This document shows positions 1-34,167 of a stretch of 64,000 bases of DNA, one piece after another. This stretch comes from Cantharellus purpuraceus (Eukaryota > Basidiomycota > Agaricomycetes > Cantharellales > Hydnaceae), in the NCBI GenBank assembly GCA_025174535.1, contig JALBUN010000008.1, positions 327,633-391,632 of the forward strand. Reading direction: 5' to 3'. The notes under the pieces were generated by a model. That model did not search any database, was not told where the DNA came from, and was given only the letters and a program-made list of their open reading frames with translations. The position numbers and the translations under genes are program-made. The first letter of the stretch is position 1. Each line of letters opens with the position of its first letter.

Positions 1-659
1 TCGGGCTCTGCATTTGTGTCGAGCTCCATATTGGCATCAGGATCTGCCTCCACCTCCACCCTCTCCACCTCTGCCGCTTCATCTTCCTCAGCCACACCCA
101 CTGCAAATAATGGTGAGTCCACCGTAGGGACAGTTGTCAGACAGGTTGTCTCTGTCTGCGTAATTGAGATGATGGTGACCTCAGGGGTCCCTGCCCGTAT
201 TGGCACACTTGGGCTCCCTGGGTGACTGGTCGCCCCTGCCCCAGTCACCTCCTCTACCTCCATGGCGGCTTCTAGCTCGTGCGCCTGCTCCTCCACTTCC
301 TTCAGTCTCGTGGCCTCCATTGCGGCTGCAAGTTCCTTGACCCTGCGGGCTCTCTTGGCTTTCGCTTCCTCCTCTTTCCTTCTCTGTTCCATCTCCGCCA
401 CCTCCTTCCATCTCCGCTCCTCCTCCTCCTCCTTCCATCTTCGCTCCTCCTCCTCCTCCTTCTGTCTCTGCCCCTCCTCCTCCTTCTGTCTCTGTTCTGC
501 CTCCTCCTCCTCCTTCCGTCTCCGTTCTGCTTCCTCCTCCTCTTTCCATCTCTGCTCCTCTTCCTCTTCCTTCCATCGGGCCAAGAGCAACTGCTCAAGC
601 TCGGCCACACTCATGCTTGCCAAAGGGTTTGACATTGTTGAGGATAAGACCTCAATCAT
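1..659 (-). CDS. ChrA antisense accessory protein, copy E (N-terminal part, runs off the left edge)
   Basis: Read on the minus strand from ATG at 657-659, the frame stays open for about 219 codons to base 1, so this is the most intact N-terminal half of the accessory gene in the window. Two later in-frame ATGs precede the conserved start MSVAELEQLLLA. A Lys/Arg/Glu coiled coil of about 100 residues follows, built from 10-residue units such as AERRRKEEEE, then a Pro/Ser/Thr linker (PGSPSVPIRAGTPEV) and an acidic stretch (AEEDEAAEVERVEVEADPDAN). The cysteine cluster and C-terminus would lie left of the window. A TATAAAAG-type box sits just upstream (about 667-674 on the minus strand), and the 3' LTR of the same element begins at 777. 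The function is unknown. The protein is inferred from three other copies to be a nuclear or nucleic-acid-binding factor of the retroelement. Confidence 0.6.
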   Translation of the reverse strand, partial: MIEVLSSTMSNPLASMSVAELEQLLLARWKEEEEEQRWKEEEEAERRRKEEEEAEQRQKEEEGQRQKEEEEERRWKEEEEERRWKEVAEMEQRRKEEEAKAKRARRVKELAAAMEATRLKEVEEQAHELEAAMEVEEVTGAGATSHPGSPSVPIRAGTPEVTIISITQTETTCLTTVPTVDSPLFAVGVAEEDEAAEVERVEVEADPDANMELDTNAEP

Positions 660-13573: not shown

Positions 13574-15604
13574 TTATACATCACGTTTCCTTTTTCCCTT
13601 CCCCTTATCTACCTCAGGCTCCGTCTCCGACTCATCATCACTCTCTACATCTGACACCCAATCTTTCTCATCCCCCATGTCCAAATCCATCCAAAGGGGC
13701 CATGAACTTCCACAACCGACGTAACTCGGCTGTCCACCGACCCTCCAGAACCTCCTTCCGTTTCATCATCTTCACCAAGTCCACTAGCAACCCCTCCATC
13801 CGCCGGAGGTGCTCCAACTGAAGGTTAACCAGCCGGATAAGCTGGCCCATGGTACTATTGGGTGCAGAGATGCGCCTCGTACCTGCACCGGTCATTGCCC
13901 CTTCCAATCCGACACCACTACCCCCGGCTGCCACAGCACCTGTCTCCGTCCACCACTTTTTGGTCGGATGACCTTCTGATTCTTTCTCTGCCCCTCCTTG
14001 TACCACTAGTCGGGGCTTGACGCTCTGACTCTGGGGATCAAACTTTCCATCGATCCTACACCCTCCTTTCTGACCCCAACAATGATCGCAGGACCAAAGG
14101 CGGCGAGTTGGGCTGGTAGGCCACACGCACTCCACACCCACATCACAACACAAGTTGCAAGTTACACTGGGCCTGCCAAATGGCTCCGCTGGAGCCAGAG
14201 CCTTGGGTGGTCCGCCCCTTCTCACTGCAGCCTCCAAGTGTTCCCTCTCCTCCTCCTTGTCCTGCTGTTCTGCCGCCACCTTCTCCATCTTGCACTTGCG
14301 AAGCTGGATTGCTGACCTCACGACACGTAGCTCCTTCTTACAGGTTGCCAACATGCGACTCTCCGCCTTGCACCATATGGCCCTCCGATCCACCTCCCGC
14401 TTCTCCGTATCAGCACTCGGGTACGCCTTCAATGAAAAGACCGCGACGTCGAGATTCTTCTTAGTGGTAGCAGCATAGAGTTCCACTCTTTTGCAAGCCT
14501 CGACCGTGGCTACCCAAGCCATCTCCTCGTAACAATTTGAAGTTGGATCTGGCTCCGCATTCGTCCTGACATCCACACCTGCCTCAGGCTCCACATTTGC
14601 GTCGAGCTCCATATTGGCATCAGGATCCACCTCCACCTCCGCCCTCTCCACCTCCGCCGCTTCATCTTCCTCAGCTGCACCCAACCCAAATAATGGCCGT
14701 GTCCATGGACGTAACGGCGAGTCCTCTGCAGTGACAGTTTTCAGACGAGTTGTCTCCATCCATGTAATGGAGATGATGGCGACTTCAGGGGTCCCTGTCC
14801 ATATAGGCACGCTTGGACTTCCTGGACTGGTTGCCCCTGCCCTGGTCACCTCCTCCTCTACCTCCATGGCAGCTTCTAGCTTGTGCACCTGCTCCTCCAC
14901 TTCCTTCAGTCTCGTGGCCTTCATCACTGTTATGACTATATTCATCAACGTCCAGATCCCCATCCGATCCACTCAGATCCCTGTGCATATGAAATCTATA
15001 CTCCATTTGGAACCCGCCGTCTCCATCTACCTGTCTGATTGTCACCACCGATTCCGCCCATCCATCTCCGGTTCCGATTGATGCATCAGCATCACCATAG
15101 GAACCTGGACATTTGTCCCCATCGGACTTGGACATACTCATGTAAGGCCGTCGGCCTTGGAGACCCATCACCGGAGTAATTATTATTAGATTTCAAAATA
15201 TGTATTTAAGTTGCCCGACTGGGGACTTCATTCCCCAGTTCAAATATTGAATCATGCCTAGTTCCTAAGTTCGATCCTAACTCTCTAAGTTGTACTCTGT
15301 CTCTGAAATCTTGGACACCAGTATTAGTGAGGGCGCAGCACATAAGCTGAAGCCAAGTCCGTTCCAACCCCCATGATGTGCTCCAACTCCGACCAAACCT
15401 CCAACCCAATCTCCGACTTCCAATCTGACCTAGTGCGTAACAATCGCAGCCGCAAGTTCCTTGACCCTGCAGGCTCTCTCGGCCTTCGCTTCCTCCTCTT
15501 TCCTTCTCCATTCCGTCTCCACCACCTCTTTCCGCCTCTGCTCTTCCTCCTCCTTGTGTCTCCGTTCCACCTCCTCCTCCTCCTTGCATCTCCGCTCTGC
15601 TGTC
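13574..15604 (-). pseudogene. ChrA antisense accessory gene, copy B (split by a solo LTR)
   Basis: This gene lies on the strand opposite pol. Reading minus: part of the coiled coil (15604-15443), a solo LTR (15442-14928), then a 420-codon open stretch down to about 13690. The open part contains the end of the coiled coil, the linker GSPSVPIWTGTPEV, an acidic patch, a second helical region (KKNLDVAVFSLKAYPSADTE; EQQDKEEEREHLEAA) and six cysteines spaced CX2CX6CX12CX2CX6C (CNLCCDVGVEC...SCDHC...C, about 14040-14160). A further helical segment (MGQLIRLVNLQLEHLRRMEG) follows. A small deletion near 13690 shifts the frame before the acidic tail and the basic terminus, whose TAA is at 13574-13576. 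The N-terminal start is missing because the element is truncated. The cluster spacing matches that of Zn2Cys6 proteins; DNA binding is inference. Confidence 0.65.
14923..15447 (+). mobile_element. ChrA solo LTR inside the copy B accessory gene (515 bp)
   Basis: The LTR spans 14928-15442 (TGTTATGACTATATTCATCA...TAGTGCGTAACA). Flanks ATCAC (14923-14927) and ATCGC (15443-15447) are a 5-bp duplication with one change. Removing the LTR restores the coiled-coil coding order seen in the other copies. Confidence 0.85.
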
Positions 15605-19485: not shown

Positions 19486-19742
19486 CTCATCACCGCCTCC
19501 TCCTCCTTGCGTCTCCGTTCCGCCTCCTCCTCCTCCTTGTGTCTCCATTCCGCCTCCTCCTCCTCCTTCCGTCTCCGTTCCACCTCCTCCTCCTCCTTCT
19601 GTCTCCGTTCTGCTTCCTCCTCCTCTTTCTGTTTCCGCTCCTCTTCCTCTTCCTTTCATCGGGCCAAGAGCAACTGCTCAAGCTCGGCCACGCTCATGCT
19701 TGCCAAAGGGTTTGACATCGTTGAGGATAAGACCTCAATCAT
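19486..19742 (-). pseudogene. ChrA antisense accessory gene fragment left of copy A
   Basis: The ATG at 19740-19742 starts the conserved N-terminus (MSVAELEQLLLAR), but a TGA (Trp TGG in copy E) follows at once. Then about 60 codons of the Glu/Arg/Lys coiled coil survive before the sequence breaks off at about 19486. The TATA box and the 118-bp leader to the LTR at 19860 are intact. The fragment therefore sits as if the LTR at 19860 were its own 3' LTR. Confidence 0.7.
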
Positions 19743-19859
19743 GCCCCTCCTTTTATATGTCTCCAGACCCCCAGTATAACTCTGACTGTGCCCCACCGTC
19801 TCACCTATTCAATCCGTGGACATGAGGCCTCAGGGGCTCGGCCCTACATGGAGAGATAC

Positions 19860-20372
19860 TGTTATGACTATATTCATTAACAACCAGATCCCCATCCGAT
19901 CCACTCAGATCCCCACGCATATGAAATCTATACTCCATTTGGAAACTGCCACGTCTCCATCTACCTGTCCAATTGTCACTGCCAATTCCACCCATCCATC
20001 TCTGGTTCCGATTGATGCATCAGTCACCATAGGAACCTGGACATCTGTCCCCATTGGACTTGGACATACTCATGTAAGGCCGTCGGCCTTGGAGACCCAT
20101 CACCGGAGTAATTATTATTAGATTTCAAATATGTATTTAAGTTGCCCGACTGGGGACTTCATTCCCCAGTTCGAATATTGAATCACGCCTAGCTCCTAAG
20201 TCCGATCCTAACTCCCTAAGTCGTACTCCGTCTCCGAAGTCTTGGACACTGGTATTAGTGAGGGTGCAGCACATAAGCTGAAGCCAAGTCCGTTCCAACC
20301 CTCACGACATACTCCGACTCCAACCCGACCTCCAACCCGATCTCCGACCCCAATCGGACCTAGTGCATAACA
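19860..20372 (+). mobile_element. ChrA 5' LTR of copy A (513 bp)
   Basis: TGTTATGACTATATTC...CCTAGTGCATAACA. The end reads GCATAACA instead of GCGTAACA, a CpG-to-CpA change. Confidence 0.9.
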
Positions 20373-20404
20373 GTATATTCGAACTGCCATACTCACTCCT
20401 ACCA

Positions 20405-21523
20405 ATGCCACAATCCACCGCCAATTCCAAACACGCCCGAATCGTCGAGGTACCCGCCCCCAGCATCGACACCATCCCCAAGGTCGTCAAAGAACCGACG
20501 GACCACATAGAGGCCGTCAATGAAGAAGACGACACCCCACCCTCTCCAAATCTGGCGCAAGCCATCTCCCTGCTCGCTAGCAGCATCCGTAACCCACAAG
20601 CTCCCAACTCCCGGACCAAGGTCCGAGAACCCAACCCATTTGATGGCTCCGATCCACGAAAGCTCCAGTCATTCTTGGTGCAATGCCGGTTGAATTTCCG
20701 CAATCGCCCCGATGCATTCACATCCGATCGGGCAAAGGTCACCTTCACCATGTCCTATCTCAAGGGCACCGCACTGGACTACTTTGAGCCAGCGCTCATG
20801 GATGACTCCAATGACCCGATATGGTCAGAGGACTACTCCGACTTCATCTCCGAGCTTTGGACCAATTTTGGTCTGTACAACCCCGAAGCCGATGCCGAGA
20901 ATGAACTCGATTGACTTCGGATGAAGGAAAATCACAAAATCGCAAAATACATTGTGAGTTTCCAGCAGCTAGCTCTGAAAGTCCAATGGGGCGACGCCGC
21001 ACTCCGACGCCAATTTTACGTTGGACTCCCATCCCGCATCAAGGATGAGATATCACGCGTCAGTAAGCCGGATAGTTTGGCTACCCTTCGCAAGCTCGCC
21101 CAATCCATCGACGCCCGTTATTGGGAACGTCAATCTGAGGTCTCCCGCGAAAATTCGGCTAACAACAAATCGGACAAATCATCGGACAAAACTCCAAAGT
21201 CCAACAAGGGGTCCAATAAGCAGGCCACCGCCAACTCAGGCCAGAAATCAAACACTGGTAACGCTGCCGCTTCCGGTTCCGGTCAGAACAACTCCGGCAC
21301 CAGCAATAACTCCAGAGCTCGCAAGAGTACTCCGGACCTCTCCACCAAGCTGGGAAAGGATGGGAAACTTACCCAGCAGGAACACCAGCACCGCATGGAC
21401 AACAACCTCTGTCTGTTCTGCGGGAAGCCTGGTCACCAAGCCAAGGATTGCAACAAGGCAACCTTGTCCGCAGCAAAGGTGAAGGGCCGCACCGCCAACG
21501 CCATGACGGACCAAAAAAAATAG
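20405..21523 (+). pseudogene. gag: ChrA gag, copy A (one internal stop)
   Basis: ATG at 20405 (MPQSTANSKHARIVEVPAPS) gives about 372 codons to TAG 21521-21523 with a single TGA at 20912-20914, where Arg or Trp is expected. Order: an acidic N-terminus, a capsid-like retrotransposon gag domain (FDGSDPRKLQSFLVQCRLNF, YLKGTALDYFEP, FVSFQQLALKVQWG-type blocks, about residues 75-230), a low-complexity Ser/Asn/Lys linker, and a CCHC zinc knuckle CLFCGKPGHQAKDC near residue 345. Gag packages the element RNA into cytoplasmic particles. Protease follows in another frame after the TAG, so pol expression would need recoding or a frameshift. It is the best preserved gag in the window. Confidence 0.85.
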
Positions 21524-24500
21524 TAAGCAGTCCTATAGCCTCCGTACAGGCTGAGGGCTGGGTTGGTACTCCCCATACGACAGACGAGGTCTGCCTGAAC
21601 GCATCCACTCTTTCCCACTCCGACTCCCTTACCCTCCTCGTCCACTCCGACTCCATTCCCGATACCACTATTCAAGCATTAATTGACTCCGGTTCTACTC
21701 ACTGTTTCCTCGATTCCTCTTTTTCTGATTTACATAAACTCCATACATACACCATAACTCCAATACCACTCCGATTATTTGATGGCACTACTAATGCTGT
21801 TATTTCACAAGCTATAGATCTGTCTATCCGTTTTTCTGTCGGAGAAATCCAGACCCTTACATTCTATGTTACTCCGCTTGACTCCAGCTGTTCTGTGGTT
21901 CTCGGCCATAACTGGCTCACCCGCTACAATCCGTTGATTGACTGGGCATTGGGCCATATCACATTCCATTCTCCAGTACAGGCTGTGTCATCCCTGACGT
22001 CACCAGCAACTCTAGGTGTGAAATTATCTTCCGCCTCTGCTGACCCCGCTCCGATAGATGCTCCATCTACCCCTCCGTTTATATTGATGGTGGACGCTAT
22101 GGTCTTTGCCAGACTAAGCAAGCTGGACAGTTCTCACACATTCCAGGTCCACCTCTCCGATCTGATATTCCTCGCCGCTCGTTCTGCCTGATCCACTCCA
22201 CCGGACCTCTCTATGGTTCCCAAGGAGTATCATGAGTTCGCCAACGTGTTCAGCAAGTCTAAAGCCAACTCCCTAGCAGAACACCGACCATATGATCTCA
22301 AGATCAAACTGGATGACAACTCCACCCCTCCGCTTGGCCCTATCTACTCGCTATCCCAAAAAGAGCTACTGGCTCTCCGGACATTCATAGATGAGAACTT
22401 GGCCACAGGCTTCATCCGCCCATCCCTATCTCCTCATGGAGCTCCGGTCCTATTTGTCCGCAGAAAGGACAGATCACTCCGTCTATGCGTTGACTTCCGT
22501 GGGCTCGAGTGGTGTGTCATGCCCTTCGGACTAACCAATGCTCCGGCTGCCTTCCAGAGGTTCATGAATGATGCCTTTGCCGACCTCCTCGACGTGACCG
22601 TCCTCGTTTACTTAGACGACATTCTGGTATATTCGGACAACGAAGAAGAACATCGGACATGTCCAAGAGGTACTCTGACGTCTCCGAACACCTGTGCTGA
22701 CAAATGCGAATTCCACTCTGACTTGGTCGAATACCTAGGCTATATCCTCTCCCCGGCAGGATTGACAATGTCCGACGACAAAATCAAAGCCATACAGGAA
22801 TGGCTGGAACCCTGGAAAGTCAAGGACATACAGTTCTTCCTCGGGTTCGCCAACTTCTACTGCCGCTTTATTCACAGCTACTCTGATATCACTGTTCCGC
22901 TCACCTGACTCACTAGGAAGGGTATCCAATGGAATTTCACTGATGAATGTAGACAGAGTTTTGAGACCTTGAAAAAGGCCTTTACTTCTGCTCCGATACT
23001 GACTCATTGGGTTCCAGACGTTCCCATCCTTTTAGAGACCGACACCTCCGACTATGCACTTGCCGCGATCCTGTCCATCATCTCTCCAGATGACGGACAA
23101 GTCCACCCGATCGCTTTTCACTCGCGTACATTTACGCCCTCCAAACTGAACTATGATGTCCATGACAAAGAGCTCCTTGCCATATATGAAGCCTTCTGGA
23201 TATGGAGACACTACCTTGAAGGTCCCTCCGATCTGGTGGATGTCATAACTGACCACAAGAACTTGGAATACTTCTCCACAACAAAACTGCTCACCCAGAG
23301 ACAAGTCTGATGGTCCGAATACCTATCTCAGTTCAATCTCATTATCTGTTTCCGTCCAGGTCCACTCAGAGCAAAGCCTGACGCGCTAACTAGACGCTGG
23401 GACGTCTACCCTAAAGAGGGGAATAGCGACTATGCCACTGTAAACCCCCACAACTTTTGTCCTGTGTTTACTAACGAGCAGCTGGCATCATCCCTACAAG
23501 CATCCACCCTCATAACTCCCACCCTCTGAGCTGTCACCATTATGGACATTGACCAACTCCATTCCGACATCCGCTCATCACTCCGATCCGATCCTGTTGC
23601 AGTTAAACACTTGGACAACCCTTCCAATCCGAAATGGTCACTTGACCCCAAAGGACACCTCCGACACAACAACCGGATATACGTCCCCAACGCCAATGGC
23701 CTCCGACTCCAAGTTTTGCAGTATTATCATGATCACCCGATCTCCGGCCACTTCAGGCAAAATTGCACACAAGGATTAATCCGATGAGACTATGTATGGC
23801 CAAAAATGCGGGAATACATTCAACACTACTGTAACTCCTGCACCACGTGTATGCGCTCAAAATCGCAAAGGCACAAACCCTATGGAACGCTCAAACAACT
23901 TCTGATCCCAGAGCAACCATGGAACTCCATCTCCATGGACTTCATAGAGAAGCTCCCCCCATCACTTGGATATGACACCATACTCGTGATTGTTGACAGG
24001 TTCACCAAACAGTCACTATTCATTCTGACGCATGACACCATCACCTCCACCTCGCTAGCTAAATTGTTTGTTCTCCACGTATTCTCTAAACACAGAGTCC
24101 CGTCGCATGTCACATCTGATCAGGGCTTGGAGTTTGTGTCCTCCTTCTTCCGCACATTAGGAAAGGCTCTCGACATGAAGCTCCATTTCACCTCCGGATA
24201 CCACCCTGAAGGAGACGGACAAACGGAATGAATGAATCAGTCCCTGGAACAATATCTCTGAATCTATTGTAACTATCAACAAGACAACTGGGCTGATCTA
24301 CTTCTGATCGCAGAGTTTGCCTACAACAATGCTCCAAACGCGACTACCGGCATCTCTCCGTTCTTTGCTAATAAAGGCTACCATCCGAACATCTCCGTCC
24401 ACCCCGAGAAAGAACTTGCCTCCACCAAAGCCTGCCAATTCGTAACCGACCTTGATCAACTACACCAACATCTCCAAGAGACCATCTCCGATGCTCAGAA

Positions 24501-24957
24501 ACAATATCAAGTCTCCGCAGACCGATGCCGCATCCTGGCTCCGGACCTGCAAATCAGAGACAAAGTATTCGTTAAGGCTGAACACTTCCGGACCACCCGC
24601 CCATCGAAGAAACTCTCCGAGAAATACTTAGGTCCTTATGAGGTCATTGCTTGCGCGGGCAGCAGGTCTTTCACCCTCCGCCTCCCAGACCACTTCCGAG
24701 CAGTTCATCCGGTCTTCCATATATCAATGCTCGAGCCTGCTACCACGAATGAGATCTCCGGTCGCACGCAACCTCCACCTCCCCCGATCATCATCAAAGG
24801 AGATAATGAATATGAGATCTGAGATCCTGGACTTGAAGATTGACCGTCAATACAAGTGCAAGCTCCAGTACTTAGTCAAATGGACTGGGTATGAAGGCAC
24901 CGATGAAGAGTCTTCATGGACCTCTGCATCTGAACTCGATCACACATCCGAATCCGT
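21524..24957 (+). pseudogene. pol: ChrA pol, copy A (RT core deleted)
   Basis: Protease ALIDSGSTHCFLDSSF and closing motif CSVVLGHNWLTRYNPLIDW (21600-22190). RT begins with the [13 protein letters not shown] region at 22213. At about 22507 the frame jumps from LCVDFRGL directly to [13 protein letters not shown], losing the ~60-residue block that holds the first catalytic Asp. The [11 protein letters not shown] box follows at about 22605. Next are RNase H (ETDTSDYALAAIL), the HHCC zinc region, the integrase core (MDFIEKLP; TSDQGLEF; GDGQTE then TGA), the GPY-like C-terminus (YLGPYEVIACAGS), and a frameshifted chromodomain YLVKWTGYEGTDEESSW (24866-24945). The chromodomain identifies a chromovirus, a group known to target heterochromatin. 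In-frame TGA codons include 22676, 23308, 23527 and 24230. Confidence 0.87.
24866..24956 (+). other. Integrase chromodomain, copy A
   Basis: The frame YKCKLQYLVKWTGYEGTDEE has the aromatic and acidic pattern of a chromodomain (YLVKWxGY...E.SW). It is in a different frame from the rest of integrase because of a 2-bp loss near 24818. The equivalent in copy D is in frame (about 34380-34480, minus). Confidence 0.75.
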
Positions 24958-26341
24958 CCACCTCTTTTTGGTCAGACGACCCTCCGATTCCTTCTCTGCC
25001 CCTCCTTGTACCACTAATCGGGGCTTGACGCTCCGACTCCGGGGATCAAACTTCCCATTGATCCTACACCCTCCTTTCCGACCCCGACAATGATCGCAGG
25101 ACCAAAGTCGGCGAGTTGGGCCGGTAGGCCACACACACTCCACACCCGCATCATGACATAAGTCGCAAGTAAAGCCGGGTCCACCAAATGGCTCCGTTGG
25201 AGCCCAGAGCCTTGGGTGGTCCACCCCTTCTCGCTGCGGCCTCCAAGTGTTCCCTCTCCTCCTCCTTGTCCTGCTGTTCTGCCGCTGCCTTCTCCATCTC
25301 ACGCTTCCGAATCTGAATTGCCGACCTTGCAACATGCAGCTCCTTCTTACGGGTTGCCAACACGCGACTCTCCACCTTGCACCATATGACCCTCCAGTCC
25401 GCCTCTCACTTCTCCATATCAGCACTCAGGTAGGCCTTCAGGGAAAAGACCACGATGTCGAGTTTCTTCTTAGTGGTAGCGGCATAGAGCTCCGCTCTTT
25501 TGCGAGCCTTGACCACAGCTACCTAAGCCATCTCCTTGTAAGAATTCAAAGTAGGATCCGGCTCCGCATCCATCCCAACATCCATGCCCACCTCGGGCTC
25601 CGCAGTTGCATCGAGCTCCATATTGGCATTGGGATCTGCTTCCACCTCCACCCTCTCCATCTCCGCCGCATCATCTTCCTCAGCTGCCCCTAACTCAAAT
25701 AAGGGCCATGCCCGTGGGCGTAACGGCGAGTCCTCCGCAGTGACAATCCTTGAACAAGTCGCCTTTGTCCGTGTAACGGAGATGATGGCAACTTCTGGGG
25801 TCCCTGGCCGTATTGGCACACTTGGACTTCCTGGGTGGCTGGTTTCCCCTGCCCCGGTCACCTCCTCCTCTACCTCCATGGCCGCCTCTAACTCGTGCGC
25901 CTGCTCCTCCACTTCTTTCAGTCTCACAGCCTCCATCGCTGCCACAAGTTCCTTCACCATGCGGGCCCTCTCAGCCTTCACTTCCTCCTCTTTCCTTCTC
26001 CATTCCGTTTTCACCGCCTCTCTCCGTTCCGCCTCCTCCTCCTCCTTGCGTCTCCATTCCGCCTCCTCCTCCTCCTTGCGTCTCCGTTCCGCCTCCTCCT
26101 CCTCCTTCCGTCTCCGTTCCATCTCCTCCTCCTCCTTCCGTCTCCGTGCTGCCTCCTCCTCCTCCTTCCGTCTCCGTTCTGCCTCCTCCTCCTCCTTCCG
26201 TCTCTGTTCTGCTTCCTCCTCCTCTTTCCGTTTCTGCTCCTCTTCCTCTTCCTTCCGTTGGGCCAAGAGCAACTGCTCCAGCTCGGCCACGCTCATGCTT
26301 GCCAAAGGGTTTGACATCGTTGAGGACAAGACCTCAATCAT
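24958..26341 (-). pseudogene. ChrA antisense accessory gene, copy A
   Basis: The minus-strand gene is convergent with pol and read from 26341. The first 272 codons are open: three possible starts (26341, 26317, 26296), MSVAELEQLLLAQ, then eight or more 10-residue units of the AERRRKEEEE type, the linker GSPSVPIRPGTPEV and an acidic block. A stop at about 25523 and a frameshift near 25190 follow. Beyond them come the second helical region and the cysteine cluster (CDLCHDAGVEC...SCDHC...C, spacing CX2CX6CX12CX2CX6C), ending at KPRLVVQGGAEKESEG. A deletion joins this to the chromodomain at about 24957, removing the C-terminal ~150 residues seen in copy D. A TATAAAAG box lies at 26349-26356, about 32-60 bp before the two inner ATGs. 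That placement suggests translation starts at 26317 or 26296 rather than at 26341. Confidence 0.7.
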
Positions 26342-26348
26342 GCCCCTC

Positions 26349-26356
26349 CTTTTATA
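26349..26356 (-). promoter_or_regulatory. TATA box of the antisense accessory gene
   Basis: TATAAAAG on the minus strand, conserved upstream of the accessory gene in copies E (667-674), the 19742 fragment (about 19750-19757) and D (30869-30876, plus). It supports an independent promoter inside the element, outside the LTR. Confidence 0.6.
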
Positions 26357-26458: not shown

Positions 26459-26985
26459 TGTTATGACTATATTCATTAACGCCCAGATCCCCGTCTGATC
26501 CACTCAGATCCCCACACACATGAAATCTATACTCCATTTGGAAACCGCCACGTCTCCATTTACCTGTCTGATTGTCACCGCCGATTCCACCCATCCATCT
26601 CCGGTTCCGATTGATGCATCAGCATCACCATAGGAACCCGGACATCCGTCCCCATCAGACTCAGACATACTCATGTAAGGCCGTTGGCCTCGGAGACCCA
26701 TCACCGGAGTAATTATTATTAGATTTCAAATATGTATTTAAGTTGCCCGACTGGGGACTTCATTCCCCAGTTCGAATATTGAATCATGCCTAGCTCCTAA
26801 GTCCAATCCTAACTCCCTAAGTCGTACTCCATCTCCGAAGTCTCGGACACTGGTATTAGTGAGGGCGCAGCACATAAGCTGAAGCCAAGTCCGTTCCAAC
26901 CCCCACGACATACTCCGACTCCAACCCGACCTCCAACCTGACCTCTGACCCAATCTCCGACCCCAATCGGACCTAGTGCGTAACA
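26459..26985 (+). mobile_element. ChrA 3' LTR of copy A (527 bp)
   Basis: TGTTATGACTATATTCATTA...CCTAGTGCGTAACA. It differs from the 5' LTR at scattered sites, mostly CpG positions, plus a few extra bases in the CCAACCTGACC repeat. Confidence 0.9.
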
Positions 26986-27982
26986 GTGGATACCCTTCTT
27001 TTTGCCTGATCAGTGCCTAGTTCAGGGATCAGATCAGGTGATTGCCTTGAAATATTCTACCCCTTTCCATAACATTCTAGCTGTTTCCTTCTATTATTAG
27101 ATAGAACATTCCAGAACCATTATTCAGCTCCTGATCAGTGTCATTGCAGTGATCAGAACCTGTGATTGGCTTGGAATATTCTACCCCTTTCTTCCACCTT
27201 CCACAACTTTCCAGTATTTCATCTATTAATAGGTATAATATTCCAGAAGCATTAGTCAGCTCCTGTAAATACAATATATAAGGAGGTCATTCTGCCTCTG
27301 AAAGAAGAACATATTCAACCTATTCTACCCATCTTCTGCACACCAGTGTGACTAGAGTGACATACAGTGTCATCCTCTATCTCAGTAACTGTTGATTACC
27401 AGTTCAAGGATCTTTTACAGTTGTGTAACTGTACTTGATTGCACTCAAAGTAGTGATATTCCTGCTTTGGGCATGAGTGTAATATCTGCCTCACGTGACT
27501 ACGAATCTACAGGGTGAGATTGTCTGTCGATAGTCCTGCCATTAGTGCTCTTGTTTAAGCTACTAGTGTGTACTGCCTTTGCAGAGAATTAGGATCTTGA
27601 ACTCGTGTGAAGCAGTTGCTAGACCACTTCACACATCACTGTTACCCGCTTCAGAGTGTCACTGGTTGGACAGTCGGATTCATCCACCTACTTCCTCTAG
27701 CCTCTAAGTGCATTCCCCTCTTTTGGGAATATCTGGACCCCTAAGCGTCTGTGAACTCTAGACTCTGGAAGTCTTATTCATCTCTTGCTGCTAAGAAACA
27801 TATTACCTTTCTGTGTATAGTCTGCATTGACCAATACAAAGGATTGTAACCAAAGTACAAACATTAAATTGTTTCTGGAGTTGTGCTGCAGCAGGGTTTG
27901 ATATTCTTCTCAGCTGTTCATTCATGGAATTGTGGTGATTTAGAGTTTGCCCTAACACCATAATTTTGCAGGTTCCAAAACA
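26986..27982 (+). mobile_element. LTR-2, copy 2 (5' truncated)
   Basis: Starts within LTR-2 (GTGGATACCCTTCTTTTTGCC, matching 32692 onward) and runs to the true end GGTTCCAAAACA. About 415 bp of the left end is missing, cut by the ChrA 3' LTR. On the right it abuts the RT of the gypsy relic at 27983. Confidence 0.85.
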
Positions 27983-30765: not shown

Positions 30766-30916
30766 GTATCTCTCCATTTAAGGCCAAGCCCCTGAGGCCT
30801 CATGTCTGCGGATTGAATAGGTGAGATGGTTGGGTGCAGTCAGAGTTATACTGGGGGTCTGGAGACATATAAAAGGAGGGGCATGATTGAGGTCTTATCC
30901 TCAACGATGTCAAGCC

Positions 30917-33900
30917 ATGAGTGTGGCAGAGCTTGAGCAGTTGCTCTTGGCCTGACGGAAAGAAGAGGAAGAGGAGCGGAAACGGAAAGAGGAGGAGGAA
31001 GCAGAACAGAGACAGAAGGAGGAGGAGGTGGTGGAATGGAGACGGAAAGAGGAGGAGGAGGCAGAATGGAGACGCAAGGAGGAGGAGGAGGCAGAATGGA
31101 GACGGAAGGAGGAGGAGGAGGTGGAACGGAGATGCAAGGAGGAGGAGGCGGAACGGAGACGCAAGGAGGAGGAGGAGGCGGAATGGAGACGCAAGGAGGA
31201 GGAGGAGGCGGAACGGAGACGCAAGGAGGAGGAGGAGGTGGAACGGAGACGGAAGGAGGAGGAAGAGCAGAGGCGAAAAGAGGCGGCGAAGATGGAACGG
31301 AGAAGGAAAGAGGAGGAAGTGAAGGCCAAGAGAGCCCACAGGGTCAAGGAACTTGCGGCCGTGATGGAGGCCACGAGACTGAAGGAAGTGGAGGAGCAGG
31401 CGCACAAGCTAGAAGCTGCCATGGAGGTAGAGGAGGAGGTGACCGGGGCAGGGGCAACCAGTCCAGGAAGCCCGAGTGTGCCTATACGGACAGGGACCCC
31501 TGAAGTCACCATCATCTCCATTACATGGACGGAGACAACTCGTCCGAAAACTGTCACTGCGGAGGACTTGCCATTACGTCCACGGGCACGGCCATTATTT
31601 GGGTTGGGTGCAGCTGAGGAAGATGAAGCGGTGGAGGCGGAGAGGGTGGAGGTGGAGGCGGATCCCGATGCCAATATGGAGCTCGACGCAAATGCGGAAC
31701 CCGAGGCGGGTGTGAATGTCAGGACGAATGCGGAGCCAGATCTAACTTCAAATTTTACGAGGAGATGGCTTGGGTAGCCACGGTCAAAGCTCGCAAAAGA
31801 GCGGAGCTCTATGCCGCTACCACTAAGAAGAATCTCGACGTCACGGTCTTTTCATTGAAGGCATACCCGAGTGCTGATACAGAGAAGCAGGAGGTGGATC
31901 GGAGGGTCATATGGTGCAAGGCGGAGAGTCGCGTGTTGGCGACCCGTAAGAAGGAGCTGTGTGTCGCTAGGTCGGCAATCCAGCTTCGCAAGTGCAAGAT
32001 GGAGAAGGCGGTGGCAGAACAGCAGGACAAGGAGGAGGAGAGGGAACACTTGGAGGCTGCAGCAAGAAGGGGCAGACCACCCAAGGCTCTGGCTCTAGCG
32101 GAGCCATTTGGCAGGCCCGGCGTAACTTGCAACTTGTGTCATGATGCAGGCATGGAGTGTGTGTGGCCTACCGGCCCAACTCGCCACCTTTGGTCCTGCA
32201 ATCATTGTCGGGGTCAGAAAGGAGGGTGTAGGATCGATGGAAAGTTTGATCCCCAGAGTCGGAGCGTCAAGCCCTGACTGTATGGGAACCACCTTTTCCC
32301 TATCAAATTCCATTTATGCAGCACCAATGTGCTATTCTTTGCTTTTCCATTCCTAAATATCAGCATATATTTGATGCTTGTACCTGGAATGGACTTATTC
32401 AAATATTCTCTATTTTTCCATATTTTTTCGGGAATATTCCATGCAGAACTCAGCTCAGAATCATTTATTTCTGCTGTGCTACAGTTGTGGACCCATAGGC
32501 GCCCACAAACCTTCGCGCAGCCGGCTCTCCCCTTTTGGACCAGGCATTTGGCCTGAATTCAAGCTCAGATGTCTCTGATCAATAAATATTCTGTAACTTA
32601 ACAACCACAGCCTCTCAGGGCACTATTTTCCGTGCAGATCATCACCTGACATGTGGCTATCCATGGCTGTCCAAACCAGTGCAGAAAACAGGGTGGACAC
32701 CCTTCTTTTTGCCTGATCAGTGCCTAGTTCAGGGGTCAGATCAGCTGATGGGTGATCAAATCAGGTGATTGCCTTGGAATATTCTACCCCTTTCCATAAC
32801 ATTCTAGCTGTTTCCTTCTATTATTAGATAGAACTTTCCAGAACCATTATTCAGCTCCTGATCAGTGTTAGTGCTGTGATCAGATCCTGTGATTGGCTTG
32901 GAATATTCTACCCCTTTCTTCCACCTTCCACAACCTTCCAGTAGTTTCCATCTATTAATAGGTACAATATTCCAGAAGCATTAGTCAGCCCCTGTAAATA
33001 CAATATATAAGGAGGCCATTCTGCCTCTGAAAGAAGAACATATCATCATCATATTCTACCCATCTTCTGCACACCAGTGTGACTAGAGTGACATACAGTG
33101 TCATCCTCTATCTCAGTAACTGTTGATTACCAGTTCAAGGATCTTTTACAGTTGTGTAACTGTACTTGATTGCACTCAAAGTAGTGATATTCCTGCTTTG
33201 GGCATGAGTGTAATATCTGCCTCACGTGACTACGAATCTACAGGGTGAGATTGTCTGTCGATAGTCCTGCCATTAGTGCTCTTGTTTAAGCTACTAGTGT
33301 GTACTGCCTTTGCAGAGCATTAGAAGCTTGAACTCGTGTGAAGCAGTTGCTAGACTACTTCACACATCACTGTTACCCGCCTCTGAGTGCCACTGGTTGG
33401 ATGGTTGGATTCATCCACCTACTTCCTTTAGCCTCTAAGTGCATTCCGATCTTTTCAGAATATCTGGACCCCTAAGTGTCCGTGAACTCTAGACTCTGGA
33501 AGTCTTATTCATTTCTTGCTGCTAAGAAACATATTACCTTTCTGCGTATAGTCTGCATTGACCAATACAAAGGATTGTAACCAAAGTACAAACGTTAAAT
33601 TGTTTCTGGAGTTGTGCTGCAGCAGGGTTTGATATTCTTCTCAGCTGTTCATTCACGGAATTGTGGTGATTTAGAGTTTGCCCTAACACAATAATTTTGC
33701 GGGTTCCAAAACACTGACTAGTGGTACAAGGAGGGGCAGAGAAAGAATCAGAAGGTCATCCAACCAAAAAGTGGTGGATGGAGACAGGTGCTGTGGCAGC
33801 CAGGGGTAGTGGTGTCGGATCGGAAGGGGCAACGACCGGTGCAGGTACGGGGTGCATCTCTGTGCCCAATAGTACCGTGGGCCAGCTTATCCAGCTGGTT

Positions 33901-34167
33901 AACCTTCAGTCGGAGCACCTCCAGTGGATGGAGGGGTTGCTAGTGGACTTGGTGAAGACGATGAAATGGAAGGAGGTTCTGGAGGGTCGGCAGACAGCCG
34001 AGTTACGTCGGTTGCAGAAGTTCATGGCCCCTTTGGATGAGGATTTGGACATGGGGGATGAGAAAGATTGGGTGTCAGATGTAGAGAGTGATGATGAGTC
34101 AGAGACGGCATCGGAGGCGGAGCCTGAGGTAGATAAGGGGAAGGGAAAAAGGAAACGCGATGTATAA
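30917..34167 (+). pseudogene. ChrA antisense accessory gene, copy D (complete but split by LTR-2)
   Basis: This is the only copy in the window with both ends. ATG at 30917 (MSVAELEQLLLA) is preceded by TATAAAAG at 30869. The frame has a TGA after residue 12 and a frameshift within the repeats, then an open stretch of 10-residue charged units (about 30960-31320), the GSPSVPIRTGTPEV linker, acidic EEDEAVEAERVEVEADPDA, a second helical part from 31765, and the six-cysteine cluster at about 32130-32230 (CNLCHDAGMEC...SCNHC...C). LTR-2 splits the gene at 32279-33713. After it come a helical region (LIQLVNLQSEHLQWMEGLL), an acidic stretch (DEKDWVSDVESDDESETASE) and a basic end KGKGKRKRDV before TAA 34165-34167. 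Without the insertion it is about 600 codons. The basic end resembles a nuclear localisation signal; this is inference. Confidence 0.7.
32274..33718 (+). mobile_element. LTR-2 solo LTR, copy 3 (1435 bp, intact, with target duplication)
   Basis: Spans 32279-33713 (TGTATGGGAACC...GGTTCCAAAACA; inverted 12-bp ends with two mismatches). The duplication CTGAC lies at 32274-32278 and 33714-33718. The uninterrupted accessory gene in copy B reads CCCCGACTAGTGG at this point, confirming the insertion. A TATA-like CAATATATAAGG occurs near 33000-33011. There is no coding frame. Confidence 0.92.

What the first reader, a model, noticed from the sequence alone, without database searches (positions are those of the whole stretch)
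24958..26341. A chromovirus that carries its own antisense gene for a coiled-coil, Gal4-spaced cysteine-cluster protein
Seen: in copies A, B and D (and partly E and the 19742 fragment) the region between the chromodomain and the 3' LTR encodes, on the strand opposite gag-pol, one protein of about 600 residues. It has a 10-residue-periodic charged coiled coil, a Pro/Ser linker, an acidic patch, six cysteines spaced CX2CX6CX12CX2CX6C, an acidic tail and a basic KGKGKRKR end. All six cysteines are kept in A, B and D although neighbouring residues vary. Known: CX2CX6CX5-12CX2CX6-8C is the spacing of fungal Zn(II)2Cys6 DNA-binding domains; chromoviruses normally encode only gag and pol. Inference: the element carries a candidate nuclear regulator that could control its own transcription, target its integration or counter host silencing.
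Basis: partly seen in the sequence, partly recalled or inferred. Interest (0 to 1): 0.85.

Follow-up and report, generated by a model that had tools for sequence, protein, structure and literature searches.

The report
Antisense zinc-cluster gene in fungal retrotransposon
A very abundant jumping gene in a fungal genome carries, on its opposite strand, an extra protein gene with its own start and end signals that selection has kept intact; similar antisense genes are known in other retrotransposons, but this protein family, with six regularly spaced cysteines, was not found described.

Summary
In a Ty3/gypsy chromovirus the stretch between chromodomain and 3' LTR encodes one antisense protein of about 480-760 aa. 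In the window it is damaged; elsewhere in the genome it is open end to end in 22 of 79 fetched copies (7 of the 39 not chosen for openness). A TATA box lies 39 nt before the likely ATG in 62 of 71 scored copies, AATAAA sits at the stop in 14 of 22 intact copies, and the gene runs tail to tail with pol. Non-CpG variants shared by four or more copies are depleted in amino-acid changes (pN/pS 0.10 and 0.08; integrase-chromodomain 0.04 and 0); one overlapping sense frame in the same codon register is also lowered, less so. All six cysteines are kept in 66 of 69 copies and in 16 of 17 metagenome relatives spanning them, 27-45% identical. So it is a selected accessory gene. Gal4-type Zn2Cys6 membership is not established: Pfam's cut-off is not reached. 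Precedents exist: Boty (brtn) in Botrytis and plant Retand/Grande/RIRE2. Best reading: a nuclear zinc protein regulating its own element; function inferred. New variant of a known kind.

The parts
26348..26356 (-). Antisense TATA box (TATAAAAGG), copy A
   Evidence: present in 72 of 79 copies; 39 nt before the MSNPL ATG in 62 of 71 scored copies; 111 nt from the LTR edge motif in 63 of 79
25523..26341 (-). N-terminal part of the antisense gene in copy A (272-aa ORF: start motif, charged E/K/R repeat helix, Pro/Ser linker, acidic patch)
   Evidence: open through to the C-terminus in other copies
26021..26253 (-). 30-bp tandem repeat (7.8 units) encoding the 10-residue charged repeat
   Evidence: number of EEEE runs 1-34 among 22 intact copies
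24955..25522 (-). Broken C-terminal part of copy A: in-frame stops, a frameshift, last ~120 residues missing
25066..25167 (-). Six-cysteine cluster CX2CX6CX12CX2CX6C, copy A
   Evidence: Cys in 69, 69, 69, 68, 69 and 67 of 69 copies
31172..34146 (+). Copy B antisense gene (31172-32283 and 33718-34146), split by a ~1.43-kb TG...CA insertion
   Evidence: cysteines 32128-32229 (+); TATA at 30868 (+)
13595..14936 (-). Copy D antisense gene, C-terminal ~430 residues
   Evidence: cysteines 14058-14159 (-)
3..659 (-). Copy E, N-terminal part at the window's left edge; TATA 666-674
19662..19757 (-). Start fragment of a further copy, with TATA 19749-19757, close to the 5' LTR of copy A
20363..24967 (+). 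gag-pol of copy A (interrupted by stops): capsid-like, CCHC, protease, RT, chromodomain at about 24821-24967
   Evidence: ORFs searched piece by piece; the integrase core of copy A was not scored
26460..26988 (+). 3' LTR of copy A (about 528 bp)
   Evidence: 93.4% identical over 497 bp to 19861-20355 (5' LTR)

Best explanation
The region is a real accessory gene of a high-copy fungal chromovirus. It is encoded on the strand opposite gag-pol between the chromodomain and the 3' LTR, tail to tail with pol, with its own TATA box about 110 nt inside the LTR edge and poly(A)-type signals at and after its stop (shown by sequence). Its protein has a conserved start motif, a charged repeat helix of variable length, an acidic linker, a predicted helical region, a six-cysteine cluster, a basic KKRR stretch, a further predicted helix, and an acidic plus basic tail. 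Selection keeps the protein sequence in the lineages that multiply (shown). Most likely (inferred) it is a nuclear, zinc-binding, oligomeric nucleic-acid-binding protein, expressed independently of the sense transcript, that acts back on its own element, at the LTR or on the sense RNA, to tune transcription or resist silencing, as has been proposed for plant antisense ORFs and is known for HTLV-1 HBZ (recalled).
For: Open frames of 477-760 aa in 22 of 79 copies, 7 of the 39 that were not picked for openness. pN/pS on 69 copies, non-CpG variants: shared by >=4 copies 0.10 (transitions, 8 N:41 S) and 0.08 (transversions, 7 N:20 S); singletons 0.77 and 0.45; Fisher p 3.6e-10 for shared against singleton. 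The other two frames of the strand and two of three sense frames give 0.92-6.9 in the shared classes, one value undefined at 12 N:0 S. Integrase-chromodomain control, 29 of 40 loci: 0.04 and 0 of 6 in the most shared class. Metagenome relatives with the same start motif, charged stretch, middle region, cysteines and C-terminal region; 16 of the 17 that span the cluster keep all six cysteines. Chromodomain on the opposite strand in 39 of 40 loci with enough flank; LTR edge motif at the TATA spacing in 63 of 79. Read-through of a TATA-like VYK upstream of the start in P0006, P0021, P0036.
Against: No transcript or protein data. Zinc binding, nuclear entry and nucleic-acid binding are not shown. 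Pfam and PDB give no significant match for the cysteine region; its predicted structure has pLDDT of about 40-60. One sense frame (f1), which shares third codon positions with the gene, also shows lowered ratios (0.21 and 0.41 in the most shared class), though weaker. In the pol control, singleton transversions ran the other way (29 N:1 S, ratio 6.3), so single cells of this count are noisy. Genomic context of the metagenome relatives could not be seen. Cysteine conservation inside the window family is partly just low divergence.
Confidence: 0.6

Rival explanations
1. The antisense product is an RNA regulator (dsRNA/RNAi trigger or brake), and the open frame is incidental.
For: An antisense transcript would be fully complementary to the 3' part of the genomic RNA; antisense promoters without coding function are known in other elements (passages of PMC7264820).
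Against: Depletion of amino-acid changes in this frame and conservation of the protein at about 40% identity call for a protein; an RNA role could exist in addition.
Confidence: 0.08
2. The protein is a structural or replication helper (Gag-like assembly factor, nucleocapsid-like RNA chaperone, integrase partner), not a regulator.
For: A long charged helix plus a cysteine cluster also suits an assembly or RNA-binding factor; constraint is close to that of pol.
Against: A separate antisense promoter argues for expression uncoupled from gag-pol; the basic KKRR and KGKGKRKR stretches suggest the nucleus (inference).
Confidence: 0.2
3. A host gene picked up by some copies (transduplication), not an integral part of the element.
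For: Zn-cluster-like cysteine spacing is typical of fungal host regulators (recalled).
Against: At least 124 places, chromodomain on the opposite strand in 39 of 40 loci, conserved TATA-LTR spacing, and relatives with the same architecture. The search for a single-copy host relative was not exhaustive, since only the best candidates are scored.
Confidence: 0.05
4. An open antisense frame produced by chance from the base composition of a biased repeat.
For: The 30-bp repeat is open in several frames; a sense ORF of 264 aa overlaps it.
Against: Constraint was measured outside the repeat, in the C-terminal 321 codons; conservation in metagenome relatives.
Confidence: 0.02

Closest known systems
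Boty / BcGypsy1 with antisense gene brtn (Botrytis cinerea; Zhao et al. 2011 Virology 417:248, seen only as a citation and through passages of PMC7264820, PMC8365987, PMC5987419, PMC4227169)
   Same: Fungal Ty3/gypsy element with a chromodomain and an additional antisense gene between pol and 3' LTR
Plant Retand lineage, maize Grande gene23, rice RIRE2 antisense ORFs (PMC11963269, PMC7264820, passages)
   Same: Antisense ORF between pol and 3' LTR; own promoter (Grande); nuclear (Grande) or predicted DNA-binding protein (Retand); tandem repeats in the region in about half of the Retand elements
   Different: Plant; Retand is non-chromovirus; TRP28 domain (PF04195) in most Retand clusters, not matched by our protein
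HTLV-1 HBZ (recalled; PMC10186651 on retroviral antisense genes seen in a search listing)
   Same: Antisense gene at the 3' end encoding a nuclear regulator
   Different: bZIP protein, promoter in the 3' LTR; no sequence relation tested
Fungal Zn(II)2Cys6 domain (PF00172)
   Same: CX2CX6CX12CX2CX6C spacing, basic second half, predicted helix further downstream
   Different: Below the Pfam cut-off; signature residues of the first half missing in the window family; long charged helix N-terminally
VANC anti-silencing proteins of VANDAL DNA transposons (recalled)
   Same: Possible analogy: element-borne protein with a motif spread over its own element
   Different: DNA transposon, plant, no relation tested

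Membership tests
Ty3/gypsy chromovirus | Capsid/CCHC, protease, RT, chromodomain at the end of pol, flanked by LTRs | tested here: met
   (DUF4939, zf-CCHC, RVP_2, RVT_1, Chromo above cut-off; Ty3_capsid below it); LTRs.
[quoted passage not shown]
Retrotransposon antisense accessory ORF (aORF-3R kind) | Transcribed from its own antisense promoter | not testable with these tools
   TATA box conserved; no RNA data
Fungal Zn(II)2Cys6 (PF00172) | Six cysteines at CX2CX6CX5-12CX2CX6-8C | tested here: met
   66 of 69 copies and 16 of 37 metagenome proteins carry the exact motif (17 of the 37 span it)
Fungal Zn(II)2Cys6 (PF00172) | Pfam gathering score (21 bits) | tested here: not met
   No Zn_clus hit in three whole proteins at E<=1; 2 of 24 members, best E 9.7; exact domain pieces 12.0-12.5 bits in 3 of 6 and none in 3 of 6. 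A 14.9-bit hit was on a piece I had mistyped and does not count
Fungal Zn(II)2Cys6 (PF00172) | PROSITE-type residue signature (pattern recalled) | tested here: inconclusive
   Full pattern in 0 of 66 copies with six cysteines and 2 of 16 metagenome proteins; 15 of 16 without its first residue
Fungal Zn(II)2Cys6 (PF00172) | Binuclear zinc fold | tested here: inconclusive
   Low-confidence models; one search covered only the C-terminal helix
Plant Retand TRP28 (PF04195) antisense proteins | PF04195 domain | tested here: not met
   no such hit in three proteins at E<=1
Boty BRTN | Sequence homology to BRTN | not tested
   No BRTN sequence at hand

The most novel reading that the evidence does not exclude
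The antisense protein is a self-recognition factor: a divergent, possibly rearranged zinc cluster that binds a short motif (CTCCGA-like) accumulated along the element's sense strand and in a 12-bp array at the end of the LTR, so that the element marks, protects or regulates its own copies. CTCCGA is the most over-represented 6-mer of the gag-pol sense strand of copy A (18 against 2.3 in dinucleotide shuffles) and strand-biased (18:1 in A; 9:1, 11:0 and 17:4 in three further stretches that also hold some inserted DNA; 1:2, 0:1 and 2:6 in three control stretches). Against the reading: much of the excess shrinks at higher Markov order (13-16 expected in A), so composition or CpG context may explain it, and no binding was tested.
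Probability: 0.1. Interest if true: 0.82.

Novelty: new variant of a known kind. Interest (0 to 1): 0.56.

Why it matters
Antisense accessory genes of LTR retrotransposons are known in plants and in one ascomycete element family, with functions only proposed in the passages read. Here is a large family in a fungal genome with many intact copies, strong protein-level selection and relatives in environmental DNA. It makes the question of what such genes do testable in a fungus, and suggests that the arrangement arises with different protein families in separate lineages. A second chromovirus family in the same genome shows no such gene in the two stretches examined, a natural comparison.

Tried and rejected

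Considered and rejected: that cysteine conservation in A, B and D alone proves function. Copies differ by about 10%, largely CpG decay of Arg codons, so the argument rests on shared-variant pN/pS and on metagenome relatives. 10 of 79 copies were dropped before the selection count because no single frame covered 300 of 321 codons. 40 of the 79 were picked from rows without listed stops, so openness counts are given separately for the other 39. In one search, 11 of 40 loci were dropped (fewer than 200 codons in one frame).

Literature: the rows listed (3 to 20 rows each, of up to 370 papers) showed no report of this protein family or of a cysteine-cluster antisense gene in a fungal retrotransposon; the library holds only open papers. 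The 2011 brtn paper itself was not read. Passages searched in PMC2864245, PMC5408684 and PMC3248453 gave nothing on antisense genes of fungal elements.

Full report
What is there. Copy A is a Ty3/gypsy chromovirus: Pfam finds capsid-like (DUF4939), CCHC, protease, RT and chromodomain pieces on the sense strand, between LTRs at about 19861-20388 (end estimated) and 26460-26988 that are 93.4% identical over 497 aligned bases. Between chromodomain and 3' LTR lies the antisense frame of the finding. In copy A it is broken by stops and a frameshift and lacks its last ~120 codons.

Copies elsewhere are intact. I fetched 39 copies ranked by DNA similarity and 40 more chosen from rows free of listed stops. 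In the first set 7 of 39 have one open frame from MIEVL to the KGKGKRKR end; in both together 22 of 79, 477-760 aa. tblastn scored 124 of 858 first-look candidates and all 124 matched, so the family is large.

Gene signals. TATAAAAGG occurs in 72 of 79 copies, 111 nt from the LTR edge motif in 63 of 79. Among 71 copies scored, the MSNPLASMS ATG lies 39 nt after it in 62 and the upstream MIEV ATG 15 nt after it in 67. A start site 25-30 nt after the TATA box would favour MSNPL (inference). Three metagenome proteins (P0006, P0021, P0036) read through the upstream region as ...(E/K)VYKDWHF...PKMSSS, and P0005 in another frame as ...RYIRTG..., which together fit a TATATAAG box about 41 nt before the same start motif (back-inferred from protein, not seen as DNA). 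The stop is TAA in the 22 intact copies; AATAAA overlaps or follows it at once in 14 of 22, and TTGTAATAAA follows within 180 nt in 21 of 22. pol ends in ...PGPLMNL* (or close variants) about 150-160 bp from the antisense stop in loci such as L043 and L044, so the two genes converge.

Selection. On 69 of 79 copies with one frame over at least 300 of the 321 C-terminal codons, I counted single-step codon variants outside CpG-type transitions, by how many copies carry them. In the antisense frame, variants in four or more copies give pN/pS 0.10 (transitions) and 0.08 (transversions), those in two or three 0.31 and 0.13, singletons 0.77 and 0.45. The contrast of the most shared class with singletons has Fisher p 3.6e-10. 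Frames +1 and +2 on the same strand and two sense frames give 0.92 to 6.9 in the shared classes (one undefined, 12 N:0 S). The third sense frame, which shares third codon positions with the gene, gives 0.21 and 0.41 in the most shared class and 0.24 and 0.52 in the next. The integrase-chromodomain region of the same elements (29 of 40 loci) gives 0.04 and 0 of 6 in the most shared class; its singletons give 0.47 and, on 29 N:1 S, 6.3, so single cells are noisy. I conclude that the protein is constrained nearly as much as pol while the element multiplies, and that copies then decay, largely by CpG deamination (242 variants in the CpG class, 163 of them amino-acid changes). Part of the shared class may be recurrent mutation, which should work against the result (inference).

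Relatives. Three protein searches found only JGI metagenome proteins: 1, 22 and 31 hits, together 37 proteins P0003-P0039; P0003-P0024 are 27-45% identical to the L036 C-terminal half. In the longer ones one sees the start motif MS...NMS(I/V)ADIEKLL, a charged stretch, EKEWVxxHKExKSAEI, EKAAAEQQxKEE, the six cysteines, DPRSRVLKPK, a KRR stretch, a Gly-rich linker and TxGQLxRLVAAQSEHM. Of 37, 17 span the cluster and 16 of these have all six cysteines; P0014 lacks the first. In the window family the six columns are Cys in 69, 69, 69, 68, 69 and 67 of 69 copies. Whether the metagenome genes also lie in chromoviruses could not be seen.

What the protein is. Pfam gives no Zn_clus or other significant hit in the three whole proteins scanned (one Nrap_D5 match at E 0.17); among 24 members the commonest weak matches are helical families such as DUF948 (10 of 24, best E 0.0044) and SlyX (7 of 24, best E 0.007), and Zn_clus in 2 of 24 at best E 9.7. 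Exact 40-41-aa domain pieces reach 12.0-12.5 bits for Zn_clus in 3 of 6, cut-off 21. The spacing is that of Zn2Cys6; the PROSITE-type residue pattern (recalled) is met in full by 2 of 16 metagenome proteins and 0 of 66 copies, and without its first residue by 15 of 16. The second half (SCDRCRSRKAGC in relatives) looks like the DNA-contacting first half of host regulators, and in the P0006 piece it is this half that aligns to Zn_clus positions 1-13, so the order of halves may be unusual; this is a lead, not a test. AlphaFold gave moderately to well predicted helices at residues 2-36 and 42-107 and, less surely, 229-283 of the C-terminal half, but not the cysteine region. I therefore describe it as a six-cysteine, probably zinc-binding protein that may work like a Zn2Cys6 regulator but is not filed as one.

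How it probably works. Own TATA box, separate strand, acidic and basic segments, conserved cysteines with a predicted helix further on, and strong constraint fit a nuclear regulator expressed apart from gag-pol. That it acts on its own element, and whether on DNA or RNA, is inference by analogy with plant antisense ORFs, where a regulatory role is only proposed, and with HBZ (recalled). An RNA-only role does not explain the selection on this frame. A structural role is the main rival.

Known or new. [quoted passage not shown] PMC4227169 (passage) says a Boty-like element has a CHROMO domain and brtn. PMC11963269 (passages) finds TRP28 antisense ORFs in 97% of Retand clusters. So the arrangement, even in a fungal chromovirus, is known. 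The protein family was not found in the rows of the paper searches listed nor in Pfam. In another chromovirus family of this genome, L085 shows one antisense ORF of 80 aa or more (145-483, overlapping pol) in 3.5 kb, and L086 none in its first 1.8 kb; where their 3' LTRs lie was not determined.

A lead that may be composition. CTCCGA is enriched and strand-biased in the gag-pol sense strand, and a TCCGA-rich 12-bp array (4.2 units, 26915-26963) lies at the LTR end. CTCCG exceeds synonymous-codon shuffles in protease, RT and integrase-chromodomain pieces but not clearly in the two gag pieces, and the CTCCGA excess shrinks against higher-order Markov expectation. I report it as unexplained.

Noticed in passing
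window 20363-24958, 26461-26988; L080-L082: CTCCGA/CTCCG over-represented and strand-biased in the element's sense strand (copy A CTCCG 37 forward, 1 reverse). Control stretches have far fewer per kb (CTCCG 4:5, 6:4, and 16:31 in window 40-64 kb). Partly explained by base composition or CpG context.
   Followed up: partly
window 26915-26963: 12-bp tandem array (CCGACCTCCAAC-like, 4.2 units) at the end of the LTR; similar TCCGA-rich ends in the six other LTRs printed.
   Followed up: partly
window 32283-33718: Copy B's antisense gene is split by a ~1.43-kb TG...CA insertion with a 5-bp TGACT duplication, apparently a solo LTR of another family; a related sequence abuts the gene about four codons away in L086.
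   Followed up: partly
window 19662-20388: The 5' LTR of copy A lies directly next to the start fragment of another copy's antisense gene, as if neighbouring elements shared an LTR.
   Followed up: no
L085, L086: A second chromovirus family with open pol frames up to 1342 aa shows no comparable antisense ORF after its chromodomain in the stretches read.
   Followed up: partly
L061, L005, L055, L069, L078: The charged 10-residue repeat varies greatly between intact copies (1 to 34 EEEE runs), suggesting a freely expanding spacer helix.
   Followed up: partly
69 copies, C-terminal half: CpG decay dominates: Arg codons turn to W, Q, C, H or stop, and 17 of 18 stops are TGA, suggesting methylation-linked silencing of the family (inference).
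   Followed up: partly
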